Source: Chaetoderma sp. LZ-2023a
Lineage: Eukaryota; Mollusca; Caudofoveata; Chaetodermatida; Chaetodermatidae
Direction: 5' to 3'
DNA length: 64,000 nucleotides
NCBI GenBank assembly: GCA_034401795.1
Contig: CM067367.1
Span: 29,411,690-29,475,689 of the forward strand
Below, piece by piece: positions 16,614 to 55,177 of this stretch. A model generated the notes under the pieces. That model saw only the letters and a list, made by a program, of their open reading frames with translations, ran no database searches and was not told the DNA's origin. A program made the translations under genes and the position numbers. Every line of letters begins with the position of its first letter. Position 1 is the first letter of the stretch.

Positions 16614-16855
16614 AACTCTTTATCCCTTGAATTTGTTCAAGGAAATTAAAATTTTTTCATAGAAAATGTCCATTTGCAGACCAAGAGAAGCCTATTTTTA
16701 AAAATTTACCACTGGAATGACTGGCTCGGTTATCGAGCCAGTCATTCCAGTGATGAATTAAAAAAAATAGGCTTCTCTTGGTCTGCAAATTGACATGTCT
16801 CTAGACTGCTGTAGAAGCCTTTTTTGGCTGATATAAGCGTTAAATGGTTAATTAA
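16614..16855. mobile_element. TP1 element with covarying stem
   Basis: Arms GAGAAGCCTATTTTTA and AAAAATAGGCTTCTC carry matched changes relative to the usual GAAGACTATT / AATAGTCTTC. Confidence 0.85.
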
Positions 16856-16959
16856 TGGAGGCATTGGTGGATGGTCTCAGTTATGGGTGTGAGTTTGTTT
16901 TGAAAATGATTTTGCATAGCACTCAACAGTTCGCAGCAACATCATTTTCAAAATTAAGA

Positions 16960-17678
16960 CACCTGTTAAACATGGTATTGAATAAATATAATATGAAGAT
17001 GAAAATTGATCAGTAAATGTGTCTCATCTCCATCTTGACTGCTTATAAAATAACGCTATTGAATTATGCCTCGATCTTTGTTTGAAAGATTTCCGTAGTG
17101 ATTTTATGGTATTTGAATGAATAGCGATATCCTCCTTTCCGTGTCTTTAGCGATGACTTAAAACAGGAATGTTTTTTAAATCTTTAAGCCTCACAGTTTA
17201 TGAATGCTGTTAAAAGAATGAAGCGACTGCATAAATTTCTTCGTCAAATGAATAAAATAGCTTTAACTATAGTTTCTGTCATTGAAGTTTTCGAGAAATG
17301 ATCAGACAAAGAGGAAATTGCCGAAACATGTCCTGTGCTAATATTTGAATTCGTATTAGCGGACACAAAAGGAGGCCTATTTATTATCTCCTGTGGGGTG
17401 TCGATTTTTGAACGATGTATAATTATCGTTGAAAAGCCAGCCACTATCATCTTATTCTGATGAGATCTTTTCATACCCATGAACAATGAGACAAGATTAA
17501 AATGCACGCCAACCGCCTTCTATATGGTTTTAAAAAGTAGGTTATGAGATTTCAAATGAATAGAATAAAAAAAAAACTACAGAGTTGCCATTAGAACTAT
17601 TAAAGGCAGTTTAAATTTGAGTCAATTTGAATTTTGAAATACACGATGTTATATGATTAATATATTAAGTCCTGAAAT

Positions 17679-17681
<3 letters not shown>
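16960..17681. other. Non-repetitive island, candidate regulatory DNA
   Basis: One of the longest repeat-free stretches near the coding exon, about 4.5 kb upstream. Contains a GAACAATG SOX-like site at 17481. Open frames here are short and unrecognised. Confidence 0.35.

Positions 17682-17749
<68 letters not shown>
17682..17749. repeat. (AT)n microsatellite
   Basis: About 34 AT repeats without interruption. Confidence 0.95.
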
Positions 17750-17754
<5 letters not shown>

Positions 17755-17794
17755 CAGTTTTAAAGCAGCTATAAATATATACAAATAAGTTGTT

Positions 17795-18045
17795 GATTAT
17801 TTTGTGACTAATTTGACTAGAAGCTGTTGAAGAAGTTTAGTTGCAAAAAAAAAATTAAGATTTTCAACAGAATATTTCTGAGATTTTGAAGAACTTGTTG
17901 TGTCTGTTTTGGTTGAAAGTGTTTATGCTCACAAATGACATTGTTGTTAATTAATTTCAGAAGTAAATTTTCAAAAATACTGGCTGTCAGATGGACATTT
18001 GCTGTGAAAATAGTTAGATTTTCTTGACCAAGTTTTGCCATACAA
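17795..18045. mobile_element. Decayed hairpin plus TP1 right arm
   Basis: ATTTTGTGACTAATTTGACT lies near 17800. TAAATTTTCAAAAATACTGG and TTTTCTTGACCAAGTTTTGC at 17960-18045 resemble a TP1 right half. Confidence 0.45.
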
Positions 18046-18439
18046 AGATGATTTGAGCACATGCATGTCAAGTGAGAACCGACCTTGGCTAAACTTAGTG
18101 CTTCCATAAATTAGCGACTACATCCATCCTCTCACTCACTTTCGCACTGATATTAATAACCCACCTGAGCATTGTTGGAAACGCGTCAATTTTAAACAGG
18201 TGTAAAAAGATGAATGGCTTTATTGTCGCCTGGCCAGGTGTTTAATTATTTCACAGATTCAATCTTAAAATTGACAAATCGTAATATGCAACAACAACAT
18301 TCTGGTTAAATGAAAACGTATTGGTTAAAAATAAGATGTCAATTAAAACAAAAGCTCGTTAACCTATTTCGATCTTCTTGTATGGTGTAGGTAAAGCGTT
18401 GTTACTTCACACGACATGTGTTTGGTTTTTGAAATTCTG
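18046..18439. other. Non-repetitive sequence
   Basis: Nothing recognised. Confidence 0.45.
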
Positions 18440-18515
18440 TTAATTAGTTTGGAAAATAATTTGTCTGAAAGTTAATAGTGCCTTCAGCAAATTGTTTTCA
18501 AAATATCCAGCAGAT
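18440..18515. mobile_element. TP2-like hairpin, decayed
   Basis: GGAAAATAATTTGTCTGAAA pairs with CAAATTGTTTTCAAAATATC. Confidence 0.55.
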
Positions 18516-18557
18516 TTACTGACTAGTCTTTTGAAACTGGCTGAGGGATTTTATTCA

Positions 18558-18994
18558 ACCATTTAATGGTTAAATCGACCACAGCCAGCAACTACAGTGG
18601 TGTTGCAGAATACCCATTTGCAGGCCAAAAGAATGAATACTACTTAGACCACAAATTTATCATAAAGAATATAGTTTTTCCACGATTTGCCGGTGAAAGG
18701 ATTAAATTTTGTTTATGAATAAACTTTGCATGAACTAAAATCATAATCTCTTAGTATTTTAACCCTATAATGGTCATGCCAGCCAAAACCATCCTTCGTT
18801 ATGGTCTTGTGGAATGACCATTTACAGGCCAAGAGAATACAATTTTTGAAAATTTACTGCTGGAATATCTGGCTCGATAACCGGGCCAGTCATTCCAGTG
18901 ATACATTTTCAAAATTTTTATTCTCTTGCCCTGTAAACGAACCTTCAATATGCATATATTTAAATTTTCTTGACCAAATTTGACCAATGGTTAA
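18558..18994. mobile_element. TP1 fragment and a fuller TP1 copy
   Basis: 18558-18700 is a loop-less remnant (ACCCATTTGCAGGCCAAAAG). 18759-18994 starts TTAACCCTATAATGGTC, has loop GGCTCGATAACCGGGCC and ends TTGACCAATGGTTAATGG. Confidence 0.75.
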
Positions 18995-19014
18995 TGGCCA
19001 AGCCAGGCAAATTA

Positions 19015-19310
19015 GGTCTCTGCAGTTGTCCCGAGAAATATCTATATGCAGACATGGAAAAGACTATTTTGCTTTTAATATACAATAATATCAAACGATT
19101 CGGGCATACAAACAAACAGACAATACATTAGAATAATACATACGTTCAGCATGGTTATAACGTGCAGTCACCCTTCAATCCTGATTCGATAAATGGACCA
19201 GTTATTCTATTGGTAGAAGTTTAAAAAATAATCTTCTCTTGGCCTGCAAATGGACATTCACTGAGCAACTGTTTTCATTTTCTTGTCCAATCTTGACCGT
19301 TAAAGGGTCA
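19015..19310. mobile_element. TP1 copy split by an inverted-repeat arm
   Basis: The left arm ends near 19067 (GAAAAGACTATTTT) and the right half resumes near 19190 (GACCAGTTATTCTATTGG), ending TTGACCGTTAAAGGG. The gap is filled by the arm described in the next entry. Confidence 0.65.
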
Positions 19311-19536
19311 AGTGTTCCGCCATTTCCTTTGGCACCTTAAAGACATGCTTTTTCTCCACAACGTATATCTTAAAGGTTAAAAACTGGTTGCGCATAGTTT
19401 ATAGAACTTCCATATCACATTTGAATCAGGATCCAAGGTCGATTGCGAGCTATAACGATACTGAACCCTCATATTTTTCTAGCGTTTTTGTCTGTATTTA
19501 TGCCAGAATCGCTTTGATATTATTGTATATTAAAAC
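19072..19536. repeat. Inverted repeat with arms of about 115 bp
   Basis: 19073-19095 is the exact reverse complement of 19513-19535 (23 bp). Similarity continues inward with drift to 19187 and 19423 (AATCCTGATT / AATCAGGATT). The loop holds the right half of the split TP1. Origin unclear: a large foldback or two opposed insertions. Confidence 0.7.
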
Positions 19537-19641
19537 CATATTGTCCGCGTAATCATTGTATATGGCTAGTCTAATGAATACATCATTGATAATACAACCT
19601 TACACCGAATGAGGCAGATACTGTTATGCTTTTTACCCACG

Positions 19642-19864
19642 TTAACCCGTAGATTTGTTCAAGAAAATTTTAATTTTCTCATAAAAATCTTAATTTTCAG
19701 ACCAAGAAAAGATTGTTTGAAAATTTATCACTGGAATAACTGGCTCGATTATCGAGCCAGTTATTCCAGTGGTAAGTTTTAAAAAAATAGTCCTTTCTTT
19801 GTCCACAAACAGACATTTCTTGAGACCACTACAGAAACCATTTTGGCCAGTTTGAGTGTTAAGC
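19642..19864. mobile_element. TP1 element
   Basis: TTAACCCGTAGATTTGTTC left end. The loop stem has a matched change giving TAACTGGCTCGATTATCGAG and GAGCCAGTTATTCC. Confidence 0.8.
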
Positions 19865-20273
19865 GATTTAGAATATTCTTTCCATCTAGACGTTTTAAAT
19901 CTATTTGTAGTCAATAATAGACTCATCCTGATATAAACTCATGCTGGTTATTTAGTAACATTTTTCACTGAAGGTTATTGCTAAAATAACAGTCAGTTAA
20001 ATTGTTCTTAAAATATCCCGCACAGATTTAATATTTCTCATCATCATCAGCATCATAAAACAGTGATTTTCAGAGTGAAATTGCTTATATAGCACCTCAT
20101 TGTTTTGTAATGTTTATAATCCTATATTTTAGACTAAGCCTTGTAGACAAAAATCGTTGACATTCCAGAGGATTGTTGCTGTATCTGAAAATCAGGACTA
20201 TACTTATTTGTGATGTCTTTCTATGCTGCGCGAGACATGGTGTTTATTCTGTGATTTCTGAGAACTTGATATA

Positions 20274-20275
<2 letters not shown>

Positions 20276-20347
<72 letters not shown>

Positions 20348-20362
20348 TATATATATAGATAT

Positions 20363-20400
<38 letters not shown>
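20276..20400. repeat. (AT)n microsatellite with ATAG interruptions
   Basis: About 125 bp of AT dinucleotides, interrupted by TAGATA between 20344 and 20370. Confidence 0.95.
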
Positions 20401-20403
<3 letters not shown>

Positions 20404-20448
20404 TAAATTGTTATCGGGAAGATCGCAATTCAGTTACAAATTTTAACA

Positions 20449-20680
20449 CTAACCCTCAAATTTGTTTTAAATATTTTTAATTTTTTCATAGAAAATGTCC
20501 ATTTGCAGACCAAGAGAAGACTATGTTTTAAATTTTACCACTGGAATGACTGGCTCGGTTATCGAGCCAGTCATTCCATTGGTAAATCTTCAAAAATAGT
20601 TTTCTCTTTGTCTGCAAATGGTCATTTCGCAAGACCACTGCAGAAGCCGTTTTTGGCTGATATGAGTGTTAATGGGTTAA
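20449..20680. mobile_element. TP1 element
   Basis: Near-perfect stem around GGCTCGGTTATCGAGCC; ends TGAGTGTTAATGGGTTAA. Confidence 0.85.
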
Positions 20681-20725
20681 GTAAGATCTCATTCGGCTTT
20701 ACTAAATGAGTGCGCCTTTAACATT

Positions 20726-20873
20726 TAAGTCAAATTTTGAAATTTTACTGCTGGAATGACTGGAAGTCATTCCAGTCGTAAATTTTCAAAAATAGTCCTC
20801 TCTTGGTCTGCAAATGGACATTTGTCAAGACCACTGCAGAAGGCATTTTTGGCTGACATGAGTGCTAGTTAAC
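20726..20873. mobile_element. TP1 right half with a minimal hairpin
   Basis: The loop has collapsed to GGAATGACTGGAAGTCATTCC, and the left outer half is missing. Confidence 0.75.
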
Positions 20874-20957
20874 CATTTTTGGTTAAAGATACAGGAAAAC
20901 TTGTTCTATAATTGACATGGTATGAACCATCAATACGTGGACATCAAATACTGGCAT

Positions 20958-21945: not shown

Positions 21946-22008
21946 GGGAATACGAGGACAATCCTGCCATGGCTTAGATACTTGCACCTGTGAGTCTTGA
22001 GCGCTGGC
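21946..22008 (+). other. 5' untranslated part of the ZFHX exon
   Basis: 63 bases between the predicted acceptor and the first in-frame ATG. A stop codon in the coding frame at 21991-21993 rules out extension of the protein upstream through this exon. Confidence 0.65.
21969..21977 (+). promoter_or_regulatory. Two-codon upstream ORF (ATG GCT TAG)
   Basis: The ATG sits in a strong initiation context (GCCATGG) and is followed after one codon by TAG, 31 bases before the main ATG and in another frame. Such minimal uORFs generally reduce initiation at the next start, so it may set ZFHX output. Seen directly; effect inferred. Confidence 0.6.
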
Positions 22009-25000
22009 ATGATGGAAGTTAGTCGTCTTGACAGTCCCGCTAACTCGAGTAATTCACCATATACGCTGACACTACCATCGAAACCAACATTGGACCATTC
22101 CAGTATAGCGAGTATGGCACATTTAGATTTTAGTAACAGACTGCCAAGCAATGGCATACTGGGTAAAATTGGCGGTGTTGAGTCAGGTGTGTTCGTGAAA
22201 TCATCAGGCATTGTGAATAAGAATCCGGCGGTGACGATTCTAAATCACCACCATCTCGGATCAGCATCAGAGTTTTACCTACCTCGTAGTTCACTGAATA
22301 GCTGCTCGTCGGAAAGACAGACCACGAATGGTCCGATAGATATTCATCATGAAATGATGCATTCCGGAATGTCACGTAACAATTCAAGCACATCTTCGAA
22401 TAGTGTTAGTCCGACGGATCAGCTCTCAGATAAAGACGATGATTTAATTGAATGTGGTGACTGTGGAGGTGAGTTTAATAACCTTTCACTTTATATGGAC
22501 CACAAATGTTCCAAATGCTTGACTTCAGCACGACCGTCTGAGATCTCGGAAAAGACGGGCAGTAATAATACACAGTTTGTTGGCAATCGTCAAGCAAATT
22601 GTGAACTGGGTAGCAGTAGTGACGATGAACTTAGTGATGTTGAAAGTTTTGATGGTAGAATTGTCTATAATCCGGATGGATCTGCTTATATAATAGAAGG
22701 TGGTGCTGATTCTAACCTTGGTGAACCTGAATCGTTATTAGCGCTACCTGAAGGATGTATAGTGGATAAGAGAGGACTAGAAGTTAGTGATAAACACACA
22801 CTTCCGCAAATTGCCAATGCCGTTTTCTTGCCAAAGAATGCATTATCACATTTTCATAATTTACTCATTTCTCCGTTGGAGAATCATACACCCACCATGC
22901 ATAGCTACAAAGTATTCAATGTCCGAGGTGCTGTGATGTCTGGATGTGACGAAAACGAGAACAGTAAATCAGAGGACGATGCAAATGGTTCATTGAATGA
23001 GTTTGCATCCACTGTACCAACAAAGCCAATTCTTATGTGTTTTATTTGCAAGCTTTCTTTTGGGTTTTCTAAATCATTTGTTGCGCATGCTATTAGTGAA
23101 CACTTACTGTCATTGAATGTGAGAGAGAATGAGCTGATGTCCCAGAGAAACACGTCTGCGATAATACAAGGAGTTGGTAAAAATAAGAACCCATTACTGT
23201 CATTTCTTAAACCAAACTTTTCTCACTGCAAAACCACCGAGTCAAAAAAAAGCCAAAGTATGCAGTTGACTTCATCAAAATTGTCTATTTGTTCATCAAC
23301 TTTATCCGAGGATAATACGAATGTAAGTTTTGTTTACAATAAACCAAATGTATCGGACAGCATTAAAACTGGTGGAGCCAAATCATATGTAGCAAATGAT
23401 AGGTGCAGTATTACGGATGGAGCTAAAGAGCTGAATCTCAATTTACGTCATAGTCTCACAAAAGATGTTATTCTTTCATCTCAGGACAGTAAGAATAGTG
23501 TTCTGGATTTGAAAGCATCTCAGTCCTTAGAACATAGTTTGAACAGTATTGTTAATAACTATTATACCTCGTCTCACAGATCCAATGTGTCAAACAGCAT
23601 TAATGCGCACAACAATCTCAATAATAATCATAGCAGTATTCCTTTAATCAAATCAGAAGATAGTGATAATAAACCAGTTCGGATTGATTTGAATCTCAGT
23701 ATTCCTCCCTCATTGGCTGAATCCATCGTTGAATCTGCCAATCATATTCAGGCTCATTCTTTCTTTGGCGCTTGTGATGAGCACCCTCACGGTCGAACAC
23801 ATGGTGTGGATTGTCCGAAGTGTGACTTGTTACTCAGCTCATCACGATCACTCGGTGGTCACATGACTATGATGCATTCTCGGAACTCATGTAAGACGCT
23901 AAAGTGTCCAAAATGTAACTGGCATTATAAGTATCAGGAAACATTGGAGATTCACATGAAAGAGAAACATCCGGATAATGACACACAATGCGTCTACTGT
24001 ATCGCGGCTCAGCCCCACCCACGTCTCGCACGAGGAGAGAGCTACACATGTGGATACAAACCATACCGATGTGAAGTATGTAATTATTCAACGACAACCA
24101 AAGGTAACCTCAGTATTCATATGCAGTCGGATAAGCATCTGAATAATATGCAGGAGCTGGCTAATGGTGGAGATTTAAGCAAGATTGCGGCTTCCCAACA
24201 AGCTTCACAGCAGGCATACAATGTACCACCACCTCCACCACCAATTACAACTGCAGCAAATATTCCAGCTAGTTCAAGTCCATCGATGATACCATCCAGT
24301 GCAGTTGATACTGATTTACAGAAAAAGAATAAGCCTAAGCCAACGTGGCGCTGTGATGTGTGTAACTATGAAACAAATGTTGCACGGAATTTGCGCATTC
24401 ACATGACAAGTGAGAAGCATACACATAACATGCTGGTTCTACAGCAGAACATGAAGCACATGCATCGCGACATGCACATGCAGATTGGTGGTGCACCTCT
24501 CGGAATGTTTGCGGCACACCAAGATAGCTCTTCGGTTGCTGCGGTTACCACTGCTGCACTGTTGGGACTCCCTGCTGCATTTCCAGGTCCACCTCCTGGT
24601 TTGCCATTCTCATATGATATGTTCCTTGCCGCTGGGTTACAGCCAGGACTCGGTTTAAATCACCTCCCATTAACACTCCCCAAGGAACAATTGGAGTCAC
24701 TTAGTTTTATGAATAGTGCTGGAACCGGTAGCTTTGTGTCTACTAATTTCGAAGCCATGAAATTGTTTCAATGTTGTGTGTGTAATGTGTTTTTCTCGGA
24801 TAGTATTGAAGGACTTCACCAACATATGCAGTTGGACCGAACCAAACATCGTGAACATGAGAATATTGCTGTTTCAAATGGAACCTATCTCTGTAATCTT
24901 TGCACCTACAAGACTAATCTCAAAGCAAACTTTCAGTTGCATTGCAAAACCGATAAACATCTTCAACGACTCCAACAGGTTAATCACATTAAAGAGGGAG

Positions 25001-25414
25001 GTGGGCCGAATGAGTGGCGTTTGAAATATCTTAATGTCAACAACCCTGTACAAGTACGGTGTACGGCATGTGATTATTTCACGAACAGTATTCATAAACT
25101 GCAAATTCACACCGCAGACCAATGCCATGAAGTGAATTCTCGATTGTACCATCACTTGCAAATCTCTGAAACACGTCTGTCATCGGCATCATCAGAACCA
25201 AAAAAAGTGTTCTACGAATGTGTTCTTTGTCAGTTCCGGACACGCACTAAACTTGGACTTATCATGCACATTCGCACGGTTCGTCATCTGCAGTGTGAGG
25301 GGGTCATGCAGGCACGGCTCTGTGAGCACGGCAAGGCAGAGGACCTTGATATGCGGGATGTCTTCACCGTCCACAAGTACACCAATGATGATGATATCAA
25401 ATTTGATGATGAAG
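22009..25414 (+). CDS. ZFHX3/4: ZFHX3/4-type zinc-finger homeobox protein, N-terminal coding exon (partial)
   Basis: This exon encodes about 1135 residues of a large nuclear transcription factor of the ZFHX3 (ATBF1)/ZFHX4/zfh-2 family, DNA-binding regulators of neuronal and muscle differentiation. Finger-start cysteines lie near residues 149 (C2HC-like, in CGDCGGEF), 344, 602, 633, 688, 782, 922, 962, 1018 and 1071. Between them are family hallmarks: LSSSRSLGGHMTMMHSRNSC, CPKCNWHYKYQETLE, QPHPRLARGESYTCGYKP, CNYSTTTKGNLSIHMQSDKH and YKTNLKANFQLHCKTDKH. Linkers are Ser/Asn-rich, with a Pro run near residue 740 and a hydrophobic Ala/Pro/Gly stretch near 850-890. Start: ATG ATG at 22009/22012; the second has the better context (A at -3, G at +4). 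The exon stops in phase 1 at 25414 after an acidic DDDIKFDDE; reading on gives only 10 codons before TGA. The homeodomains and later fingers that define the rest of the family are not here, so this is one piece of a protein probably about three times longer. Vertebrate genes likewise place these fingers on one large early exon. Family call very secure; ZFHX3 versus ZFHX4 orthology is not meaningful for an invertebrate. Confidence 0.96.
22466..22474 (+). promoter_or_regulatory. Strong internal donor-like site, same phase as the real donor
   Basis: GAG|GTGAGT lies inside the codons of the first finger. Splicing at 22468/22469 would remove 2946 coding bases, a multiple of three, so an isoform lacking all fingers of this exon would stay in frame. 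Whether it is used is unknown. Confidence 0.4.
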
Positions 25415-25420
25415 GTAGGT
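25411..25420 (+). promoter_or_regulatory. Splice donor of the ZFHX exon
   Basis: AAG|GTAGGT; the intron starts at 25415 and interrupts a codon after its first base. The position coincides with the end of family similarity (after the VFTVHKY segment and acidic tail). Confidence 0.8.
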
Positions 25421-25457
25421 CGTTTACATCATGTAATACATGCTGAATTTTTCTTTA

Positions 25458-25458
<1 letters not shown>

Positions 25459-32269: not shown

Positions 32270-33370
32270 GGTGTAACAATGGGTGAGTGACAGAATTTGT
32301 GGTTTGTTAATGGTGATTGATTGACGGTATGTGCTTGTGACAATGGGTGCTAGACAGGGTATATGGGTGTGACAATGTCTGATAGACAGGGTATATGGGT
32401 GTGACAATGGGTGATAGATAGGGTATATGGGTTTGACAATGTCTGATAGACAGGGTATATGGGTTTGACAGTGTCTGATAGACATGGTATATTGGTGTGA
32501 GAATAGGTGATAGACAGGATATATGGGTGTGACAAGGGTGATAGACAGGGTATATGGGTGTGACAATGGGTGATAGACAGGGTATATGGGTGTGGCAATG
32601 GGTGATAGACAGGGTATATGGGTTTAACAATGTCTGATAGACAGGGTATATGGGTGTGACAATGGGGGGGATAGACAGGGTATATAGGTGTGACAATGGG
32701 TGATAGACGGTATATGGGTGTGACAGTGGGTGATAGACGGGGTATATGGGTGTGACAATGGGTGATTGACAGGATACGCAGCTGTAACAATGGGTGATTG
32801 AAAGGGCATGTGGCTGTGACAATGGATTGGGCAATTGATGGTCATGTTCCAAGCCATGTGAGTATGGCATGCCCAGTAATGGCAATGACCATACAGTCCA
32901 TGTGGCAATGCATGGTGGGTATGGCATATGTACATGTATGCCGATGATGATGGGCAGGGCATATGCGATGACATAAATTTTGGATAACAGGGAAATGTGG
33001 GTGTGGCATTCAGTGGCAAGGACGATGGGAAGTGCACATGGGAATGGCAGTGATGATGGGAAGGGCATGTGGGCAATGACTTGAACACATTTGGGTGGCA
33101 TTGTTTCTGGGCATGACATGTATAATGTGAGTGATGTTGATGGGTAGGGCATATTGATATGGTGATGATTGATGGGCAGATAAGGTGGGTGTGGTAATCA
33201 TGTCTCCGGGCACTTGGTGTGTGTCAGTGACTGATGTAAATTGAATCTTGGTCAACAAATCAAGCGGTGGATAGGTCATATTGTTGTGATATTTGATTTT
33301 GGCATTGTGGTTGTGATATAATATTATGGGCAACTGAAGTGTGCGGGGTGTGCCTATAAGTGGTGGCCCG
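32270..33370. repeat. 32-bp minisatellite with a decayed extension
   Basis: Unit TGATAGACAGGGTATATGGG plus TGTGACAATGGG, about 14 copies from 32330 to 32800. From 32800 to 33370 related words (GGGCATATG, GGCAATGG) recur irregularly, an older part of the array. The unit has no stops in any reverse frame, which creates several long overlapping ORFs that I do not regard as genes. Confidence 0.9.
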
Positions 33371-40387: not shown

Positions 40388-40796
40388 CATGGGCCTTTCC
40401 ACTTTATCAATCCATCATATGACGTCATAAACAACTAACTACGTGACATGTAGGATGATGTCATTATCAATGATGTCATGAATGGCGTAGATAAGTACCT
40501 CACGAACGATTAATTGAAGACGGGCTAAGCATTGTTGTACAAATTGTATCTTTTTACTATTTAATAAACATGCTGTTGAATATTTCGAAACTAATTTGAT
40601 TGGGCGGTGTTGCTGCCATAGGCAGCAACAGCACCCAGTCAAATTAGTTTCAAAATATTCAACAGCTTACCTGTATAGCTTTTCTGGAAATTGATAGTCA
40701 GGGTGTTTCGGGATCGATCGATCCTATCATGAGCGAGGTGTGGATGGAGCTTAGCTAGAGATGGGCGGGGCATAGCTAAATCTGAACAGGTCCATT
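40388..40796 (+). mobile_element. CE element, complete
   Basis: ATGGGCCTTTCC to GGTCCATTA. ATATGACGTCATAA near its left end contains TGACGTCA; perfect-looking hairpin around GCTGCCATAGGCAGC; GGGATCGATCGATCC block on the right. Confidence 0.88.
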
Positions 40797-43492: not shown

Positions 43493-44661
43493 CAGGTAAT
43501 TGACACGACTGGGATTGAATTTACATGGAATGCTGATAATTCAGTACTGCAAGGAATATATTATGTTCACGGAATTAAATGAGTTTACACGGCAGCGTGA
43601 GCGTTGACCTGTCGCCTGATTGGAACAATAGCACTCTAAAAAGACATAGGCTTTGAATGCCATCGAGCCATTTTACCCATTCAGGTGTTCTGTGTGTTTG
43701 TAAGCTTGCTAGCTAGGACAAATGACAACGGTGACGGTGAATAATCATAATAATAAAAGCAGACTTGAATAGGACAGGCTAATTCTGAAGAAGAACGGCC
43801 TAGACTAGGTCTTCTTTTTTGCCTGGGAAAATTAAAATCAGAATGTATGGCTTAGTTTGGTAATGAGAGATGGGCGATATCACAGGTAGTATAACTAAGT
43901 GGAGGGAATTAATGTATTGACGATTCAAGGAAGAAGATGTTTGCTTGACTGCTTGGTTTGTTAAAGCTTTAAGTTTACGACTTTATAGCTGGTTCAAAAA
44001 CTTCTAGAGAGAAAATCACCAGTACAACATATTGTCTTTTTCTAGGACAGATTTAAGCTTTCTCGAAAGTATAATCAACAGGTTCTGAGGTGTGCTGGCT
44101 TATTAATGAAGAGAGCAGACGACAAACTCATCATAAGAGTCCTGTCGTTGTATTTATTTGTTTGCGGCTTGTTTAGTGTCTAGCGAGCGCGAGTATATGC
44201 TCAGGTATTTGCAGGCGCTGTGCGCGGTATTATCTGAAGTTGTTTTTACACAGTTTTGAATGTATTAAATTTAATATTATTGTCTTTCGGAAGTGATCAG
44301 GAGTTTTTATGGTGTTGTTTTTGCTTCTTTTAAATATTAAGAATTTTATTGTGCCGTTATATATTGCTTCTTCTTTAGGATTGGTCTTGCGCTGAATTTA
44401 TTTATATTACAGGATGTTTACACGCAATTACTTGTGCCATAATTTTGATAAGGGGTTTGGGGATGAATGGACGGAGGGGGGGTAGATGGCACTAAATTAC
44501 GCACCGGCCTCATGCAGAGTATAAATGACCCTGCTTTATTAGATGGTAGTGACAGAAAAATGCCTTACAAGAATTAATCTGTGATTTAATGTTAAACTTC
44601 TAAATCTTTGTACCTAATTAACTCTTTAAACACCAAAACTGAAATATGAGTTTCACAAGGC
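43493..44661. other. Long non-repetitive island, candidate regulatory DNA
   Basis: Nearly 1.2 kb free of palindromes. TGGAACAATAG at 43621 is SOX-like. No coding signature. Confidence 0.4.
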
Positions 44662-44900
44662 TTAACCCTTTCACACTCATATCAGCAAAAAACGGCTTCT
44701 GGAGTGGTCTTGAGAAATGTCCATTTGCAGACCAAGAGAAGAGTATTTTTGAAAATTTACCACTGAAATGACTGACTCGATAATCGAGTCAGTCACTCCA
44801 GTGGTAAATTTTCAAAAATACTCTTCTCTTGGTCTGCAAATGGATATTTTTAATGGGAAAAGTGAACTTTTAAAAACAAATTCAAGGGTTAAAGGGTTAA
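44662..44900. mobile_element. TP1 element with covarying stem
   Basis: TTAACCCTTTCACACTCATA to TTAAAGGGTTAA. Stem GAGAAGAGTATTTTTGAAAA pairs with AAAAATACTCTTCTC, and tip TGACTCGATAATCGAGTC is also matched; both differ from the consensus in paired positions. Confidence 0.9.
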
Positions 44901-44984
44901 ATCATACAGTACAGCTCTATAATAAGTTACCATGTTTCCAAAAAAAACCCAGAAACATGATAGGTTAGTACAATTTCGAGCATG

Positions 44985-45273: not shown

Positions 45274-45482
45274 CCAGGCATTTCTTACACACTGCATGGG
45301 AAAGAGAATTTTCTCTCCACTTTTGGAGGAGAGATTTCAAGATCCAAGCACTGGATCTTATTAACACAAACTAAACCTCGGGTGAGAGGATCATTTGATC
45401 CCCATGGTGATCGACGCATTAATCAACATGTACCCACCTGTGGCAACGAACCTGTTTCATTATGCACCATGTCACACCATTC

Positions 45483-46127
45483 TTAACACTTGAATTTATT
45501 CAAGAAAATTTCAATTTTCTCATAGAAAATGTCCATTTGCAGACCAAGAGAAGACTAGTTTTTACTAGACGGTTATCGAGCCAGTCATTCCAGTGGTAAA
45601 TTTTCAAAACTAGTCTTCTCTTGGTCTGCAAATGGACATTTCCCAACACCACTGCAGAAGCGGTTTCTGCCTGATATGAGTGTTATAGGGTTAATGGTCA
45701 AATTTGGTTAAGAAAAGCTATATATTTGTTTTGAATGTCCATTTATTTTTTTGGAAATTTACCACTGTAATGACTGACTCGGTTATTGAGCCAGTCATTA
45801 CAGTGATAAATTAAAAAAATAAAATTTCTTAGCCTGCACATGAACATTCTTCAAGACCACTGCAGAGACCGGTTTTAGCCGGCTTGACCATTAACCCTTT
45901 TACACTCATATCAGCAAAAAAACGCTTCTGCAGTGGTCTTGAGAAATGTCCATTTACAGACCAAGGGAAGACTATTTTTTGAAAATTTACCACTGGAATG
46001 ACTGGCTTGATAACCAAGCTAGTCATTACAGTGATCAATTTTCAAAAATAGTCTTTTCTTGGCCTGCAAATGGACTTTTCCTACCAAAAAATTGACATTT
46101 TTGAAAACAACTCAAGGGTTAAAGGGT
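45483..46127. mobile_element. Array of three TP1 elements sharing TTAA junctions
   Basis: Copies 45483-45694, 45691-45895 and 45892-46127. Single TTAA sequences at 45691 and 45892 serve as the end of one copy and the start of the next. The first has a paired change (GACTAG / CTAGTC) in the stem and a shortened tip. Confidence 0.88.
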
Positions 46128-46344
46128 TCAGAAGGAACCGCAAATTCTCCCATCAGTAGGGAGAAAACCCATACTGGATCTATCTACTCCACACCATGAA
46201 ATCTCTAGTCACCTGCCCTATAGGATGAGGGGGGTCCATTTATCTTCCCTCCCCCCCCCCCCATACCCCCACATTTTATTTCTTTACCTGTATCTTTACT
46301 TTGAAATTGAGATTCTGGGTATTCAGAGTTCTGAGGCTTAAGTC
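46128..46344. other. Non-repetitive sequence with a C run
   Basis: Thirteen or so C at about 46250-46262. Confidence 0.6.
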
Positions 46345-46582
46345 AATGGATAAATCCAGTTATAACTACGCCCCGCCCATCTCTATAGCTAATCTCCACC
46401 CACTCTTTGTCTGTGTTGGGATCGCTCAATTCATGAATCTCTATTTCTAGAAAACTGTACAGGTAAGCTATTGAATATTTTGAAACTAGTTTGACTGGGT
46501 GCTGTTGCTGCCATAGCTGTTGCTGCCAATCAAAAGCGCCCAGTCAAATTAGTTTCAAAATATTCAACAGAATGTTTATTAA

Positions 46583-47151
46583 AGGTGCATATTCACACTG
46601 AGATGCTTGAAGATAAAATTCTTAAAATTTTATATTTTTAGAGATTTAAATTATGAGCCTAGATCCAATGACATGAAATAAATCTTACCATACATGTATG
46701 ATGATATAATTACATATAGATTAACATTTATTAAGCTATGAAATTAAATTAGAGACAAGTCCCTAATTCAACTTCGCAACTAAAAAAAAAAATGTAATTT
46801 TATGGTGAATGAAATCATATGTTAAGATTTATTTCATTTCATTACATCATAAATTAAGCCTCTAAAAGTACACAATTTTAACCCTTTAACCCTGATATCA
46901 GCCAAAAACGGCTTCTGTAGTCGTCTTAAGAAAGGTCCATTTGCCGACCATGAGAAGACTATTTATGGAAATTTACCACTGGAATGACTGGTGCAATAAC
47001 CGAGCCAGTCATTCCAGTGGTAAATTTTCAAAAATAAACTCTTGGTCTGCAAATAGACATTTTCTATGAGAAAATCAAATTTTTTAAAAACATTCGAGGT
47101 CTAAAGGGTTAACAAGTTTATCTTCAAGCATTTTGGTGTGAATATGTACCT
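46583..47151. mobile_element. Element with long TIRs, inserted at TTAA inside CE
   Basis: TTAA|AGGTGCATATTCACAC ... GTGTGAATATGTACCT|TTAA; the inverted repeats run about 34 bp to GAAGATAAA / TTTATCTTC. Further inward inverted segments around AGATTTATTTCATTTC suggest a long foldback. It is itself split by a TP1. Confidence 0.85.
46882..47108. mobile_element. TP1 element nested at TTAA
   Basis: TTAA (46878-46881)|CCCTTTAACCCTGATATC ... GAGGTCTAAAGGG|TTAA (47109-47112). Innermost level of a three-deep nest. Confidence 0.9.
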
Positions 47152-47419
47152 TTAAATAGAAAAGACACAATTTGTACAATGTGACAGACCATTAAGTGTC
47201 TATGACTGACTAAATTGTGTCATTCATGACATACTTGATTATGACTTCAGCTTACACATGATGTAGTTGATTATGACATGACATGACATCATATGAGTGA
47301 CTGCGAAACTGGATTCATCAATTGGATAGTATTATATGGGGATTGACATTATCACAATTTATATTAGTGCACTATGGGGCTTTATTTTAAAGAAATGAAA
47401 TAGGTAATTTGTGTCAACT

Positions 47420-48040
47420 TAACCCTTTAATGGTCAAACTGACCAAAAACCACTTTCGCAGTGGTCTTCAGACATGGCTATTTGAAAGGCCTAGAGAAGA
47501 GTATTTTTGAAAATTTACCACTAGAATGACTGGCTCGGTTACCGAGCCAGTCATTCTAGTGATAAATTTTCAAAAATACTCTTTTCTCAGCCTGCAGATA
47601 GACACTGGTTAAATTAAAACTTTAATTTTCTTTACCATTACCCCTTTAATGGTCAAGCCGGTGGGAAAAATAATTCAGTGGTAAATTTACAGAATAGCCT
47701 AAAATTCAAATATCCTGAAAAATATTGACCATCAAAATGTTTAATTGATATATGAAGTAATATTTTGAGGGCTTTGAGGCATTATTGACACAAGAGCGGT
47801 TTAAGGCGTAAAGTAAGATTAATTATTCAAGAGAATTGTTACCAGCAGTAAACTGTCTTTTTGCAGGCCAAGAAAATACTATTTTTTAAATTTTACCACT
47901 GGAATGACTGGCTCGATAACCAAGCCAGTCATTCAAGTGATAAGTTTAGAAAAAAATTGCTCTTCTCTAGGTCTCCAAATGAAAATTTATTAATCAGAAA
48001 TTTTAATTTTTAAAGCATTTTTGCACGTTAAAGAGTTAAT
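47420..48040. mobile_element. Cluster of three TP1 copies of differing decay
   Basis: 47420-47642 is well preserved with stem change GAAGAGTATT / AATACTCTTT. 47643-47750 is a remnant with a single CAGTGGTAAATTTAC arm. 47818-48040 has loop GGCTCGATAACCAAGCC and ends GTTAAAGAGTTAA. Confidence 0.8.
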
Positions 48041-48201
48041 TAGGTCTGAACACAAGGAGAATTATGATGATAGACTGAAAACAATTTCATTGCTTATACC
48101 TGTGTTGTCATGGTAAACTTGATTAGATAACTTCAAAGAAAATGATCTTGTATGGCTGACTAACAAGTATGCATCTAATGAACAGGTAAGAATATTATTA
48201 T

Positions 48202-48662
48202 TTAACCCTTTAACCCTCGAATTTGTTCAGGAAAATTTCAGTTTTCTCATAGAAAATGCCCATTTGCAGACAAAGAGAAGACAATTTTTGAAAATTTACC
48301 ACGGAAATGCTTGGCTCGATAACCATGCCAGTCATTCCAGTGGTAAGTTAAAAAAAAAAGCCTTCTTGATCTGGAACATTTTCTATGATAAAATTGAAAT
48401 TTTTGAACAAATTCGAGGGTTAAAGGGACCCTTTAACACACATATTAGCCCAAAATGGCTTTTGCAGTGGTCTTGAGAAATGCCTATTTGCAGACCAAGA
48501 AGACTATTTTTGAAAATTTACCACTAGAATGACTGGCTCGGTTATCGAGCCAGTCATTCCAGTGATAAAATTTCAAAAATAGTCTTCTCTTGGTCTGCAA
48601 ATTTACATTTCTCAAAACCACTGTAGAAACCGGTTTTTGCTGATATGAGTGTTAAAAGGTTA
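48202..48662. mobile_element. Two TP1 copies end to end
   Basis: 48202-48427 starts TTAACCCTTTAACCCTCGAA and ends GAGGGTTAAAGGG. 48428-48662 begins ACCCTTTAACACACATATTA directly after it and ends TGTTAAAAGGTTAA. Confidence 0.85.
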
Positions 48663-49766: not shown

Positions 49767-49970
49767 TTAACTGTTGAGTTTCTGAGACTGCAGTTGTCGT
49801 GGGGATTTAACTCTGGACCTGCTGAATATTTTGAAAACAATTTGACTGAAAGTTGTTGGTGGCTTTGCCACCAACCACTTTCAGTCAAATTGTTTTCAAA
49901 ATATTCTGTAGGTATAGAGTTATTGCCCATTGAAATTATTGTTTGGTGGCTTGCAGCCATCAGGCAGTGA
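49767..49970. mobile_element. TP2 element
   Basis: TTAACTGTTGAGTTTCTGAG left end; long stem around GTGGCTTTGCCAC; right end of the CTTGCAGCCATCAGGCAG type. Confidence 0.85.
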
Positions 49971-50718: not shown

Positions 50719-50929
50719 TTAACTGGAATGACTTAAGACTTGTTATCTTTTTCTTGGTCTGTAAATGGATATAAACAAAAGTTTATCCCTGGAATGACTG
50801 GTTCGGTTATGGAGCCAGTCATTCCAGTGGTTGATTTGCAAAAATAGTCTTCTCTTTTTCTGCAAATGGCCATTTCTCAAGGTCACTGCAGAAGCCGTTT
50901 TTGGCCGATTTCAGCATTAAACGGTTAAT
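50719..50929. mobile_element. TP1 element, rearranged left side
   Basis: The left side begins with right-arm-like ACTTGTTATCTTTTTCTTGG sequence. The tip GGTTCGGTTATGGAGCC and right half to TTAAACGGTTAA are intact. Confidence 0.7.
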
Positions 50930-50997
50930 GTCTTAATTGTTTTCTTTCTAAATTAATAAACATGGAACCTCAACTCATCACACAGGTTAAATGATAT

Positions 50998-51466
50998 GAA
51001 TTTTGAAATTAATTTGGTTGAAAGTTGGGGTTTCTTCAGTAAAAGAGATTTCAAAATAACCAACATTTAACTGTGTTAGTGAGGAAATGCTCACATATAT
51101 ACCAGATAACAATTACAAGCGTTTAAAAAGATATGGTAATGGTCAATGTTCTTAAAAATGGAGTTGTTAAATCGAGGAGTTGATTTCAAGTTTGACAGAG
51201 ACAGAAACCTAATTATGGCACATTGGCCTATCTCGTGACTCAGTCATGATTACCTGGTAGTGATTACAGGTACGCAAGCTCATTTACATGTGAGTTATTA
51301 TCTTATTGCGACGGTCAGGTACGAATGAGTATATATATATATATGGTAACTGGTAAGAAGTAATAAATATGGGTTGTTGAAAATGGGCACGAAATTGGAG
51401 CGATTTTTTTTTTGCAACACAATTTATAAGAGTCACATTGCTTATTTGTGTTGAGGTATTTATTAA
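50998..51466. other. Decayed hairpin followed by unique sequence
   Basis: 50998-51065 pairs TTTTGAAATTAATTTGGTTG weakly with AGATTTCAAAATAACC. The rest is unrecognised, with an AT run near 51332. Confidence 0.45.
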
Positions 51467-51670
51467 TTAACTGTCTGACTGCTACAATGCCACCAGACAA
51501 TAAGTTTAATGGTGCAATAACTCTTGAAATGTTGAATATTTTGAAAACAATTTGACTGAAAGATGTTGGTGGCCTAACTGGTTTTAATTTTTCTACAAAT
51601 TTGATGGAAGATGTTGCTGTCATCGACAGCAACATCGTCCACCAAAATTGTTGAAAACTGTAGACCGGTT
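51467..51670. mobile_element. TP2 left half fused to a different hairpin
   Basis: TTAACTGTCTGACTGCTAC through GATGTTGGTGGCCTAAC is TP2. From 51576 a separate hairpin pairs GATGTTGCTGTC with GACAGCAACATC, with flanks ACTGGTTTTAATTTTTC and AAAACTGTAGACCGGT. Confidence 0.7.
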
Positions 51671-51746
51671 TCTTTGCTATTGATGCAGTAAAGGATAGAA
51701 TATTAACATTAGAGTAGAATATTAACATTAGAGTGGTAAGGGTTAA

Positions 51747-51854
51747 CCCAGCAGGCACATGACGATGTTTCAACATTGAATCCACATTGAAATCACGTCA
51801 TGACGTGATTTCAACGTGGATTCAATGTTGAAACAACGTCATGTGCCTGCTGGG
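51747..51854. repeat. 108-bp near-perfect palindrome
   Basis: CCCAGCAGGCACATGACG... to ...CGTCATGTGCCTGCTGGG; the arms differ at only two of 54 positions and meet without a spacer at CACGTCATGACGTG. It resembles foldback elements I recall from other aquatic animals. TP1 sequence lies on both sides (GGGTTAA before, AATTTGATCAAG after), so it appears inserted in a TP1. Confidence 0.9.
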
Positions 51855-52308
51855 AATACTCAAATTTGATCAAGAAAATTTATTTTGTAGAAAATATCCA
51901 TTTGCAGACCAAGAGAGAACTTATTTTAGCAGCGATGGTAATGCAGGTTACTGGGCCACTATTGCACCAATACCAGGTCATATTGGCCCAGTATTTGTCC
52001 AGTTCTGGCCCAGTAGCCTCTGTTAGCGTTATCGGGGAGGTTGTCATCTTAGAACTGCAACAGCTCTTGATTTTCATAAAATATGTGTCTAAGATTAATT
52101 GTTCAAGTTCTTCCCATCAATTCACCCCGAGAACAAACACACTCTTCCACCCTATAGCAATTGCCACTCAATTATTCAGACAAGTTAAGAACAGACTCGC
52201 AGGATCAAAAGAATTATCTCCCCTGATTGCTACCAGATTATCTCCCCTGATTGTTAAAATGCATCATAGTATCTCTCTGATTTAAAGCAGAATACTGTTT
52301 TTTATCGC
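51855..52308. other. TP1 left fragment then unique sequence
   Basis: 51857-51930 holds TCAAGAAAATTTATTTTG and CCATTTGCAGACCAAGAG, then stops. A 139-codon plus-strand frame at 51866-52285 starts in this fragment and is not credible. ATTATCTCCCCTGATTG occurs twice near 52216 and 52237. Confidence 0.5.
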
Positions 52309-52526
52309 TTAACACAAGCTGGGCAAAGGCGGCCTCTGCGCTGGTCTTGAGAAATGTCCATTTGCAGATCAAGGGAAGACTATTTTTGAAAATTTACTAC
52401 TAGGATCACTAGCTCAATTACTGAGCCAGTCATTCCGATGATGAATTTGCAAAACTAATCTCTTGGCCTGCAAATGGACATTTTCGATGAGAAAATTAAA
52501 ATCTTCCAGAACAAATTTGAGGGTTA
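52309..52526. mobile_element. TP1 element, decayed
   Basis: TTAACACAAGCTGGGC start, TTTGAGGGTTACGGG end; tip AGCTCAATTACTGAGCC. Confidence 0.75.
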
Positions 52527-52614
52527 CGGGCGTAATAATTTGTTGCATGTCAGTTTCATTAACCCTTTCAACAGAATGGACAAGAAACAAAATCTAATTG
52601 TAGTCTAAATTTTA

Positions 52615-52700
52615 AATATGCCGCTGAATATTTTGGAATTAATTTGACTAGAGAGCAAACAGATTATAGACAAATTATCTTCAAATAATCAAAAATTTCT
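52615..52700. mobile_element. TP3-like hairpin remnant
   Basis: GAATATTTTGGAATTAATTT on the left; only ACAAATTATCTTCAAATAAT remains of the right arm. Confidence 0.5.
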
Positions 52701-52723
52701 TACATTTTTTTGGAATTTGTTAT

Positions 52724-53048
52724 TATCCCCACATATTTTGGTAACACGGAGGGAATATTGCAATCTCTGTCCATCCATCCTTTCACCTAATCCATCTATC
52801 CATCCAGACGGATGCTGGTCAGCCGACCAGCTATCTCTTCTGTAATTGGGTGGTGGAATTCAATCAAATTTGTTATGTGAGTTACCCATATTATTGGGGA
52901 TTGTGAGACAATGTTTACATTAGGCTCCACCCTCAACATGGGTGGGGTGGGGTATGGTGGGAAAGGGGTGGGGTTAGCAGAACATCAAAGTTGCCGAAAG
53001 CATGGGGATTTGCGATGTGTTACCATCGAAAGCACATTCTAATTTCTA
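52724..53048 (+). mobile_element. Dispersed TATCCCC-type repeat
   Basis: TATTATCCCCACATATTTTG, a CTGTCCATCCATCC stretch, GTGGGGTGGGG blocks and CATGGGGATTTGCGATGTG follow the order of a repeat I recall as common in molluscs. Identification by memory only. Confidence 0.45.
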
Positions 53049-53636
53049 GTCTATAGGGTTGAAAGAGTTTTATGATAAGTAAATCTTTTCTTGTTTTCTC
53101 TCTATGAGGTTTTTGTACTTAAATTATCAGAGTGGAGCTAATTATTGTATTGAGATAGTCGGGGAAATATTCAAATAACTAATAAATTACTGTTTTATTT
53201 TTTGATGAAAAAAAATGCTATATACATTGTTGATTTAACGAAGATGTTCTTAACAGTGAAGACATTAAGCTCAATTGAATACTAATTAAAATTTATATAC
53301 ATTCACTCACTGACACTTGTAACTCTATATAAACCAGACCTGTAAATTTTTTAATGAGTAGAAAATATTATTTTCCTACGGCAGCGACAGCTTCCAGTCA
53401 AACTGGTATCAAAATATTAAACAATGAACCTGCATGGATTAATTTGAAATTGATATCCCGGTATTTCATGGGTGAAAAAGTTAATACAGTTCTATCCTGG
53501 ATTCCAAAATAGCCTGTCATCATGCATGCTGTATGTTTTTGAAAACATTTGGCTGCTCAAGTCATCAATAAATTAATTAAATAATAAATTATTAACTAAC
53601 TATATATATAGGTGTCATGAATTACAAAATGTTGTC
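53049..53636. other. AT-rich sequence with a TP/CE right arm
   Basis: 53375-53425 is a lone right arm (GACAGCTTCCAGTCAAAC). The rest is unrecognised. Confidence 0.45.
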
Positions 53637-53705
53637 TAAGGCCGTGTTCTCACTGGAGTGTTTGGCGTTATTCCTAATTAAGTCTCTAGTGAGAACATGG
53701 CCTAA
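53637..53705. mobile_element. Short element with 20-bp inverted ends
   Basis: AGGCCGTGTTCTCACTGGAG (53639-53658) matches the reverse complement of 53684-53703 at 18 of 20 bases. Only 25 bp lie between, including CTAATTAAG; a miniature DNA transposon. Confidence 0.75.
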
Positions 53706-54129
53706 GATTTATGTGTAGGTGAAACATTGACTCTTTAAAATTGTTAAAAAAAAATTCCAGACAAAAAATATCATATTTAGTTGTTTATCAAGCAGATCGT
53801 AGTACGAGATAGCGTATTGATCGCAATAGCGGATCGATCGTTATTTTTCCAAAATTAATTAATGCTATATGTTTAACTTGATAACGATGGTTCTATTTGA
53901 TTTATGTGTGATATCGCGAGCAGACTCGCATAAATTTACATAGCTAATTTGGTTTACTCAGCCATTAAAGAGATTAATATGGAAAGAGAGGGAGGAAGCC
54001 AATTTACACCTGTTCCGCATTTTAGACATCTTGTCATCATTTCGGAATTGTTAATTAATGTATGCGATTAGCCCCATTTCCGCATATATATTCTCTAAAA
54101 ATATAAATCATTATGTGATACATATGTGA
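53706..54129. other. Non-repetitive island, candidate regulatory DNA
   Basis: Contains GGATCGATCG at 53831 and several TTAATTAAT strings. No ORF. Confidence 0.35.
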
Positions 54130-54220
54130 ATTTTTGCTGATTATTTTCTAAATAATTTGACTGAAAGTTTGTGACAGCAACAACTTTCTTTCAAATTATT
54201 TTGAAAATATTCAGCCTGTT
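54130..54220. mobile_element. TP2-like hairpin, short tip
   Basis: TAATTTGACTGAAAGTTTG pairs with CAACTTTCTTTCAAATTA. Confidence 0.65.
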
Positions 54221-54377
54221 TCACAATTACCTCCATTGGAACCAAGTGTCTATGTATGAAGAGGGTCAGAATTGGTTTTAGTTTCTCCTGATAAATGATA
54301 GATGTATAACTGACATATTACAGGTACTGTTCCACTGAGTAATAACAATTCTGGTATCACCTACAGATGGACTATCC

Positions 54378-54395
54378 CTGTTACCTAGGTAACAG
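54378..54395. promoter_or_regulatory. Perfect X-box-like palindrome
   Basis: CTGTTACCTAGGTAACAG fits the RFX-family X-box pattern GTTRCC-N2-RGYAAC with both half-sites exact. No nearby gene start, so it could be an intronic enhancer site or chance. Confidence 0.4.
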
Positions 54396-54446
54396 TACAG
54401 GTGTACCTTAAGAATAATATTGTTGAATTATACGTTTACAGCAGCC

Positions 54447-54884
54447 TAGGCTTGCGCGATTATTGCCTTCAGTAATCACGATCGATTATTTAATAATAAT
54501 CACGATTACTCGATTAATCAGCTTGAGTACAAATTACCCAGTTATAACAGAAAAAAAGCATATCAATGACGAAAGCTGCAATGATGTTGAGAAAGGTCGA
54601 TTTGCAGGCCAAGAGAAAATTATTTTTGAAAATGTAGCACTGGAGTGACTGGCTCGATTCTCGAGCCAGTCCCCCCGACCATGCCTGCAAATGGGCATGC
54701 ATTCGCTGAGGGAAATGTAAATTTCCGTGACCGATCGCAATAAAGAATAATAAGGTAGGTTTTGAAATATTTTATGCTGTAGAATTATTCACGATTATTC
54801 GATTATTTAATTTTTAATCATATAAATTCACGATTTAAAAAATAATCATGATTTTCCATTTAATCTCGTAATCGCGCAAGCCTA
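54447..54884. mobile_element. hAT-like element with perfect 8-bp target duplication
   Basis: TAGGCTTGCGCGATTA / TAATCGCGCAAGCCTA termini, flanked by CAGCAGCC at 54439-54446 and again at 54885-54892. The interior is full of ATTATTCGATTATT-type words. A TP1 (about 54570-54742, tip GGCTCGATTCTCGAGCC) sits inside it. Confidence 0.88.
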
Positions 54885-54944
54885 CAGCAGCCATCGCCCC
54901 ACCCGCTACCCAGTAGCCACACCCCTTTGACATGAAATTTAATC

Positions 54945-55177
54945 ATTTAATGCTCAAATTTGTTCAAGAAAATTTAAATATCTGCCTGTTGAATGTCCAT
55001 TTACAGACCAAGAGAATACAATTTTTGAAAATTTATCAATGGAATGACTGACTCGGTTATCGAGCCAGTTATTCCAGCAGTAGATTTTCACAGATTGTAT
55101 TCTCTTGTCCTGTAAATGGACATTCCACAAGACAATAGCAGAGGCTGGTTTTGGCCGGTATGACCATTAAAGGGTTA
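54945..55177. mobile_element. TP1 element with covarying stem
   Basis: GAGAATACAATTTTTG pairs with GATTGTATTCTC, a matched departure from consensus. Ends GACCATTAAAGGGTTAA. Confidence 0.88.

What the first reader, a model, noticed from the sequence alone, without database searches (positions are those of the whole stretch)
16614..55177. Stem arms covary between copies
Copies differ from consensus by changes that are mirrored in both arms: GAAGCCTATT/AATAGGCTTC (16614), GAAGAGTATT/AATACTCTTC (44662, 47420), GAATACAATT/TTGTATTC (54945), GACTAG/CTAGTC (45483), TAACTGG/CCAGTTA (19642). Independent drift would break pairing. Either the arms are homogenised inside each molecule (foldback gene conversion or template switching), or the RNA hairpin is under selection, or subfamilies spread after paired changes.
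Basis: partly seen in the sequence, partly recalled or inferred. Interest (0 to 1): 0.7.

Follow-up and report, generated by a model that had tools for sequence, protein, structure and literature searches.

The report
Palindromic mobile-DNA subfamilies with mirrored arms
Copies of a short palindromic mobile DNA show mirrored changes in their two arms mainly because they descend from a few source elements whose arms already matched, while copies sitting in the genome mostly decay one base at a time.

Summary
The mirrored changes are real, but the examples are selected. The repeat is a 240-bp non-coding element with TTAA-CCCTTT…AAAGGG-TTAA ends (piggyBac-type MITE hallmarks) and a perfect internal palindrome (63-bp arms, 5-nt loop). 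Of 208 usable copies, 203 fall into four subfamilies (A1–A4) by flanks alone. Within subfamilies one-sided changes far exceed paired ones (1420 vs 124 cells; about 58 paired expected from shuffles), so drift does break pairing. Between the four consensuses the pattern differs: 7 pairs differ by paired change, 6 by one-sided change, 1 by an unmatched double change. A second palindromic family (B) replicates this more strongly: 9 of 45 pairs changed on both sides, none on one side only. A roughly twofold excess of private paired changes remains; it is transversion-rich and one-sided wobbles show no strand bias, against RNA-hairpin selection, but no conversion-tract signature was found. Best reading: arms stayed matched in the mobile source lineages, probably by arm-to-arm copying (template switching), and those lineages then spread; resident copies drift singly. 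A loop-inversion test was suggestive but weak, and its genome-wide version did not complete by the tool.

The parts
16608..16856 (+). Family A copy (A1 branch with GCC, pair 79)
   Evidence: Model alignment and paired state at pair 79; motifs at 16687 and 16766
16666..16728 (+). Left palindrome arm of that copy (model columns 54-116)
   Evidence: Read from the sequence against the consensus
16734..16796 (+). Right palindrome arm of that copy (model columns 122-184); loop 16729-16733
   Evidence: Read from the sequence against the consensus
44657..44904 (-). Family A copy (A1 flanks) with GAG, pair 80
   Evidence: motifs at 44738 and 44817
47414..47643 (-). Family A copy, subfamily A3, with GAG, pair 80, and an inverted loop centre
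54935..55183 (+). Family A copy, subfamily A2 (GAATACAATT)
   Evidence: motifs at 55014 and 55095
18754..18992 (-). Family A copy, subfamily A2, sharing the paired changes at 64, 68, 78 and 81
45477..45699 (+). Family A copy with GACTAG (pair 83) and a central deletion shared by relatives
   Evidence: motifs at 45553 and 45610
19633..19870 (+). Family A copy with TAACTGG/CCAGTTA (pair 107)
   Evidence: motifs at 19737 and 19757
15725..15965 (+). Family A copy, subfamily A4 flanks

Best explanation
Family A is a piggyBac-type MITE (TTAA target, CCCTTT...AAAGGG ends, no gene in its 240 bp) with a long internal palindrome. Its copies descend from a small number of source elements (A1-A4 and sub-branches). 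In the source lineages the two arms changed together: a mutation in one arm was copied into the other, most probably by template switching or hairpin-primed synthesis, and the matched source then spread with a transposase supplied in trans, carrying the paired change into many copies. Once inserted, copies mutate one base at a time and pairing decays. Shown: subfamilies, paired divergence between them, mostly one-sided decay within them, transversion-rich paired excess, no RNA-strand bias. Inferred: arm-to-arm copying as the cause in source lineages, and mobilisation by a piggyBac transposase.
For: Shared paired variants far above control (9 against 0.6 in 6 or more copies). Internal-branch co-changes 12 against 1.1, terminal 39 against 16.1, tree of 137 copies. 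Four flank-defined consensuses differ by 7 paired, 6 one-sided and 1 unmatched double change, with 0.02-1.59 chance co-changes per comparison. Within groups 1420 one-sided against 124 paired cells. Family B consensuses: 3, 7 and 9 of 45 pairs changed on both sides, none on one side. Three of the 7 paired source changes in A are transversions (78, 80, 81), and the private paired excess is transversion-rich (29 against 11.4 expected; transitions 27 against 16.7), which fits copying better than G-U intermediates. Inverted loops: full inversion in 3 of 189 copies against 0.29 expected. Template switching is a described cause of arm homogenisation and loop inversion (PMC8794818, PMC8604942). 119 piggyBac transposase matches in the genome.
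Against: A3 sources spread with 5 one-sided and 1 unmatched pair, so matching arms are neither always restored nor needed. No long matched tracts around 56 private paired changes (13.3 against 13.1 pairs, p 0.42). Inverted-loop copies are not clearly richer in private paired changes (6/12 against 48/171, p 0.10; group-unique 6/12 against 35/171, p 0.028; stratified permutation p 0.13). Paired change per pair relative to flank change varies widely between subfamily comparisons (1/63 against 18/92 for A1-A4; 3/63 against 7/90 for A2-A4). The same paired change at 80 lies on A1, A2, A3 and A4 flanks, so exchange between copies or recurrence blurs the tree. No parent transposon found in six loci.
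Confidence: 0.6

Rival explanations
1. Ongoing arm-to-arm conversion or template switching inside resident copies is the main cause.
For: Twofold excess of private paired variants (66 against 35), transversion-rich; 12 copies with inverted loop; young inverted-loop copies carry paired changes in 6/10 against 27/124 (p 0.015, one-sided, chosen after seeing the data).
Against: One-sided changes outnumber paired 1420 to 124; no matched-tract signature; in A2 and A4 some of 500 shuffles reach the observed private number; part of the excess can be unsampled subfamilies, as seen in family B.
Confidence: 0.2
2. The RNA hairpin is under selection and compensatory mutations keep it.
For: Paired changes between source consensuses; two of the observed source-level one-sided states are G-T on the plus strand (A2 pair 97, A3 pair 54).
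Against: No strand bias of one-sided wobbles (394 against 367) and a transversion-rich paired excess; most copies have decayed stems; no Rfam match in the window. No RNA data were available.
Confidence: 0.1
3. Chance coincidence at mutable sites plus selective reading.
For: Some pairs are changed often on both sides (pair 97: 50 left, 27 right, 11 paired of 177); about 58 paired cells are expected within groups by shuffling.
Against: Shared paired variants exceed every re-pairing control; B consensuses differ on both sides of 9 pairs with no one-sided difference.
Confidence: 0.05

Closest known systems
piggyBac-type MITEs (non-autonomous TTAA elements)
   Same: TTAA flanks, CCCTTT/AAAGGG termini, short, no gene (family traits recalled)
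   Different: Most of the length is a perfect internal palindrome; no parent with the same ends found in six loci
Foldback elements (such as Tetris and Galileo; seen only in search listings)
   Same: Long inverted repeats that can fold back
   Different: Foldback repeats are terminal (recalled); here the palindrome is internal and asymmetric flanks lead to short TTAA termini
Template-switch homogenisation of inverted-repeat arms (PMC8604942: abstract and Introduction; PMC8794818: abstract and Discussion)
   Same: Predicts matched changes in both arms, including transversions, and loop inversion
   Different: Described for short repeats in yeast genes and for RNA genes; here the strong signal is between transposon subfamilies and little is seen in resident copies
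DINE-1 stem-loop in Drosophila (PMC2374699, passages only)
   Same: A stem of a mobile element that differs between species while staying complementary
   Different: 7-11-nt stem near one end; here 63-bp arms and many subfamilies in one genome

Membership tests
piggyBac-type MITE | TTAA at both ends with CCCT/AGGG termini | tested here: met
   Consensus ends; 66 of 208 copies keep TTAACC and GGTTAA at both ends, 105 the 5' and 118 the 3' end
piggyBac-type MITE | piggyBac transposase available in the genome | tested here: met
   119 matches to PF13843, several with frames of 540-660 aa without stops
piggyBac-type MITE | Autonomous parent with matching terminal sequence | tested here: inconclusive
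   Six of 119 transposase loci fetched; none with the family-A ends
piggyBac-type MITE | Empty target sites showing TTAA duplication | not tested
   No empty sites were sought
Foldback element | Long terminal inverted repeats making up the element ends | tested here: not met
   Outer 54 and 53 columns are not palindromic in the consensus
Structured RNA under selection | Strand-specific tolerance of G-U pairs | tested here: not met
   394 G-T against 367 A-C one-sided mismatches
Structured RNA under selection | Transcript or small RNA from the stem | not testable with these tools
   No RNA data; the Rfam scan of the window gave no match at gathering scores

The most novel reading that the evidence does not exclude
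The palindrome is rebuilt as part of the element's own life cycle: an excised or replicating hairpin intermediate copies one arm onto the other before reinsertion, so source elements evolve as perfect palindromes and each new subfamily is founded by a freshly re-palindromised molecule, while inserted copies are left to decay.
Probability: 0.2. Interest if true: 0.7.

Novelty: new member of a known kind. Interest (0 to 1): 0.4.

Why it matters
Covarying stems are often taken as evidence of RNA function. Here two families of non-coding palindromic elements show strong covariation that is carried mainly by subfamily descent, with no sign of RNA selection in the tests made. A genome with this many long palindromes is also a natural experiment for measuring how often inverted-repeat arms are corrected against each other, and whether that happens in resident DNA or only in the mobile lineage.

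Tried and rejected
Rejected: 'changes are mirrored, so drift is not acting' (one-sided changes dominate). Corrected on the way: a first control suggested that private paired changes are near chance (33 against 24.4+-4.2); with subfamily consensuses and age-stratified shuffles they are about twice chance (66 against 35), and I report the latter. Considered and not accepted: the private paired excess in family B (18 against 5.2, 19 against 5.6, 14 against 3.3 in B1, B2, B3) as conversion; the paired cells gather in few copies (three copies hold 16 of 23 in B1, 14 of 33 in B2 and 12 of 20 in B3), which look like members of unsampled subfamilies, but this was judged by eye. Not decisive: the loop-inversion association (post hoc). 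The axis column of the loop is A-rich among its changes (15 A, 4 C, 2 G; p 0.0002 against the other T columns pooled), but 11 other T columns are also A-rich, so that alone proves little. Negative: matched-tract test; parent transposon in six loci. Clustering by distance at cut 0.2 left 40 of 43 clusters with one or two members, so assignment by flanks was used (5 of 208 copies unassigned and dropped).

Dropped rows: L001 (repeats part of the window) from then on; second members of identical contig pairs among L140-L148 from then on (210 to 208 rows); copies below the coverage limits (fewer than 35 complete pairs; later counts: fewer than 42 pairs or 150 columns, 251 aligned copies to 210). 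One search ended in a script error; its count was redone. Ten of the 66 private variants equal another subfamily's mark and were left out (56 kept).

Paper searches listed no work on paired divergence between subfamilies of palindromic MITEs that I could recognise from titles and abstract starts; the library lacks most subscription journals, so this is not proof of absence.
Full report
WHAT IT IS. The window lies in a 2.44-Gb genome and holds a ZFHX3-like zinc-finger reading frame. The finding concerns a repeat (family A) whose consensus, from 89 copies, is a 240-bp element TTAACCCTTT…AAAGGGTTAA. Such ends are typical of piggyBac-type elements (recalled). Model columns 54-116 and 122-184 form a perfect 63-bp palindrome around a 5-nt loop; the outer parts are not palindromic and give each copy an orientation. 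nhmmer gave 62 hits in the window and 67 in 200 kb from 20 places that I spread over nine large contigs; 7 of the 20 places had none. These hits include fragments.

CHECK OF THE OBSERVATION. The mirrored motifs are present at the positions, except that the 47420 copy lacks the stated right motif. GAAGAGTATT also occurs twice (11017, 13863) without that partner. In the first count, of 111 copies, 1075 changed pairs were one-sided, 136 compensated and 73 changed on both sides without pairing; 63 compensated were expected from independent columns. One pair (68/170) supplied 30 of the 136.

SHARED OR PRIVATE. For 177 copies I listed each paired variant by its number of carriers, with a control that re-pairs each left column with a non-partner right column of the same base (300 draws). 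Variants in 6 or more copies: 9 against 0.6; in 3-5: 5 against 3.4; in two: 10 against 5.9; in one: 33 against 24.4. On a FastTree tree of 137 copies, complementary co-changes on internal branches were 12 against 1.1 and on terminal branches 39 against 16.1. The signal is strongest where it is inherited, but terminal branches show it too.

SUBFAMILIES. Genome searches returned 40 scored places per query; for each I fetched 20 short stretches: relatives of the copies at 16608, 44657, 54935, 47414, 15725 and 45477. These sets are chosen by similarity, not at random. A2 (GAATACAATT; 23 copies) differs from the main consensus by four paired arm changes and one one-sided change. A4 has a perfect palindrome. 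A3 has an inner stem with paired changes and a decayed outer stem. Assigning 203 of 208 copies by flanks alone to A1 (99), A2 (25), A3 (24) and A4 (55), the four consensuses differ at 14 arm pairs: 59, 64, 68, 78, 80, 81 and 102 paired; 54, 57, 62, 65, 91 (A3) and 97 (A2) one-sided; 71 (A3) unmatched. Among A1, A2 and A4 alone the count is 4 paired to 1 one-sided.

WITHIN SUBFAMILIES. Totals over the four groups: 10393 unchanged pair cells, 1420 one-sided, 124 paired, 75 unmatched double. Shuffling right-arm letters within age strata, which keeps column hot spots, gives 57.6 paired cells in sum, and private paired variants of 13.4, 4.0, 2.5 and 15.2 (sum 35) against 26, 7, 9 and 24 observed (sum 66); the highest of 500 shuffles were 23, 10, 8 and 25, so A2 and A4 alone are not beyond the shuffles. 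Of the 66, 36 are unique among all 208 copies. Leaving out 10 that equal known subfamily marks, private variants are 27 transitions (16.7 expected) and 29 transversions (11.4 expected). One-sided changes are 761 transitions and 659 transversions, with G-T 394 and A-C 367. This does not look like RNA selection through wobble pairs. The matched span around 56 private events is ordinary (13.3 against 13.1 pairs, p 0.42; transversions alone 15.6 against 14.1, p 0.15).

LOOP INVERSION. Relative to the flanks, the loop reads inverted in 12, forward in 171 and ambiguous in 4 of 203 copies, 16 being uncallable. The complete inverted loop was found in 3 of 189 copies against 0.29 expected from its three columns. 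Copies with an inverted loop carry a group-unique paired change in 6 of 12, forward copies in 35 of 171 (p 0.028, one-sided, chosen after seeing the data); the broader definition gives 6/12 against 48/171 (p 0.10), globally unique changes 4/12 against 25/171 (p 0.10), and an age-stratified permutation p 0.13. I stated a genome-wide test in the notebook, but the search did not complete.

GCC at 16614 is carried by 10 of 208 copies, 8 with a common left-flank mark and two on other flanks; GAG by 30 copies, on A1, A2, A3 and A4 flanks. GAATACAATT is A2. GACTAG (pair 83) is unique: of 20 relatives (three pairs of them identical) none has the pair, one has the left half and one the right half with its left arm deleted. 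TAACTGG (pair 107) is in 2 of 208 copies and may be chance.

REPLICATE. Family B, different in sequence by eye, is also palindromic (45-bp arms). They differ on both sides at 3 (B1-B2), 7 (B2-B3) and 9 (B1-B3) of 45 pairs and on one side at none; B1 keeps one T-G pair, so one of these changes starts from a mismatch. Private paired variants within B groups also exceed the re-pairing control (18 against 5.2, 19 against 5.6, 14 against 3.3). They gather in few copies that look like other subfamilies, and 23 of 36 B1 copies have none.

MECHANISM. Two-step compensation needs a mismatched source to persist and then one specific second mutation. Between A1 and A2, paired change per pair is about a third of the flank change (4 of 63 against 20 of 95); the other comparisons with A4 give 1/63 against 18/92, 3/63 against 7/90 and 3/63 against 14/75. 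Three of the seven source-level paired changes are transversions. A one-step copy of one arm to the other fits this better than G-U intermediates. Template switching does this and can invert the loop (PMC8794818, abstract and Discussion read; PMC8604942, abstract and Introduction read). Because resident copies show little of it, I place it mainly in the mobile source lineages; this is inference. A3 shows that sources with mismatched outer stems can spread, so perfect pairing is not strictly needed. The terminal repeats also differ in a mirrored way between A1 (AACCCTC, AACACTC on the other end) and A2 (AATGGTC on both ends).

MEMBERSHIP. TTAA and CCCTTT termini are met in the consensus (66 of 208 copies keep both ends) and piggyBac transposase genes abound (119 matches), but no parent with these ends was found in the six loci looked at. 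DINE-1 is the nearest printed case of a mobile-element stem staying complementary while its sequence differs (PMC2374699, passages only).

Noticed in passing
window 957-63504; e.g. 49819-49907, 40573-40665, 957-1049: A second palindromic family (B), with at least three subfamilies B1-B3 whose arms differ only in a paired way, plus a more distant relative (L010:6471, L019:7955, L027:131).
   Followed up: partly
window 45743-48577 and model pairs 78-81: Pairs 78-81 of the family-A stem hold four of the shared paired variants, all transversions; the pair-80 change sits on A1, A2, A3 and A4 flanks, suggesting recurrence or exchange between copies.
   Followed up: partly
window 45477-45699; L129-L148: A branch of family A with an asymmetric central deletion in the left inner arm; the deletion ends differ between its members.
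   Followed up: partly
window 21994-25446: Open reading frame of 1150 aa with ZFHX3-type zinc fingers.
   Followed up: partly
window 57977-58305: Four-unit tandem array of about 81 bp made of family-A left-arm-like sequence (CAGTGGTCTTGGGAAATGTCCATTTGC...).
   Followed up: no
window 32336-32825; 3684-4500; 13084-13379: Tandem arrays: 32-bp unit (about 15 copies), 280-bp unit rich in ATCC (about 3 copies), 25-bp unit (about 12 copies).
   Followed up: no
L140/L141, L142/L143, L147/L148: Identical or nearly identical element copies on two contigs each, likely second-haplotype contigs; usable for allelic comparison.
   Followed up: no
G000, 119 places: Many piggyBac transposase genes, several with frames over 540 aa without stops; two elements fetched (L151, L152) have CACGTTGACTGCCA-type ends next to TTAA.
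   Followed up: partly
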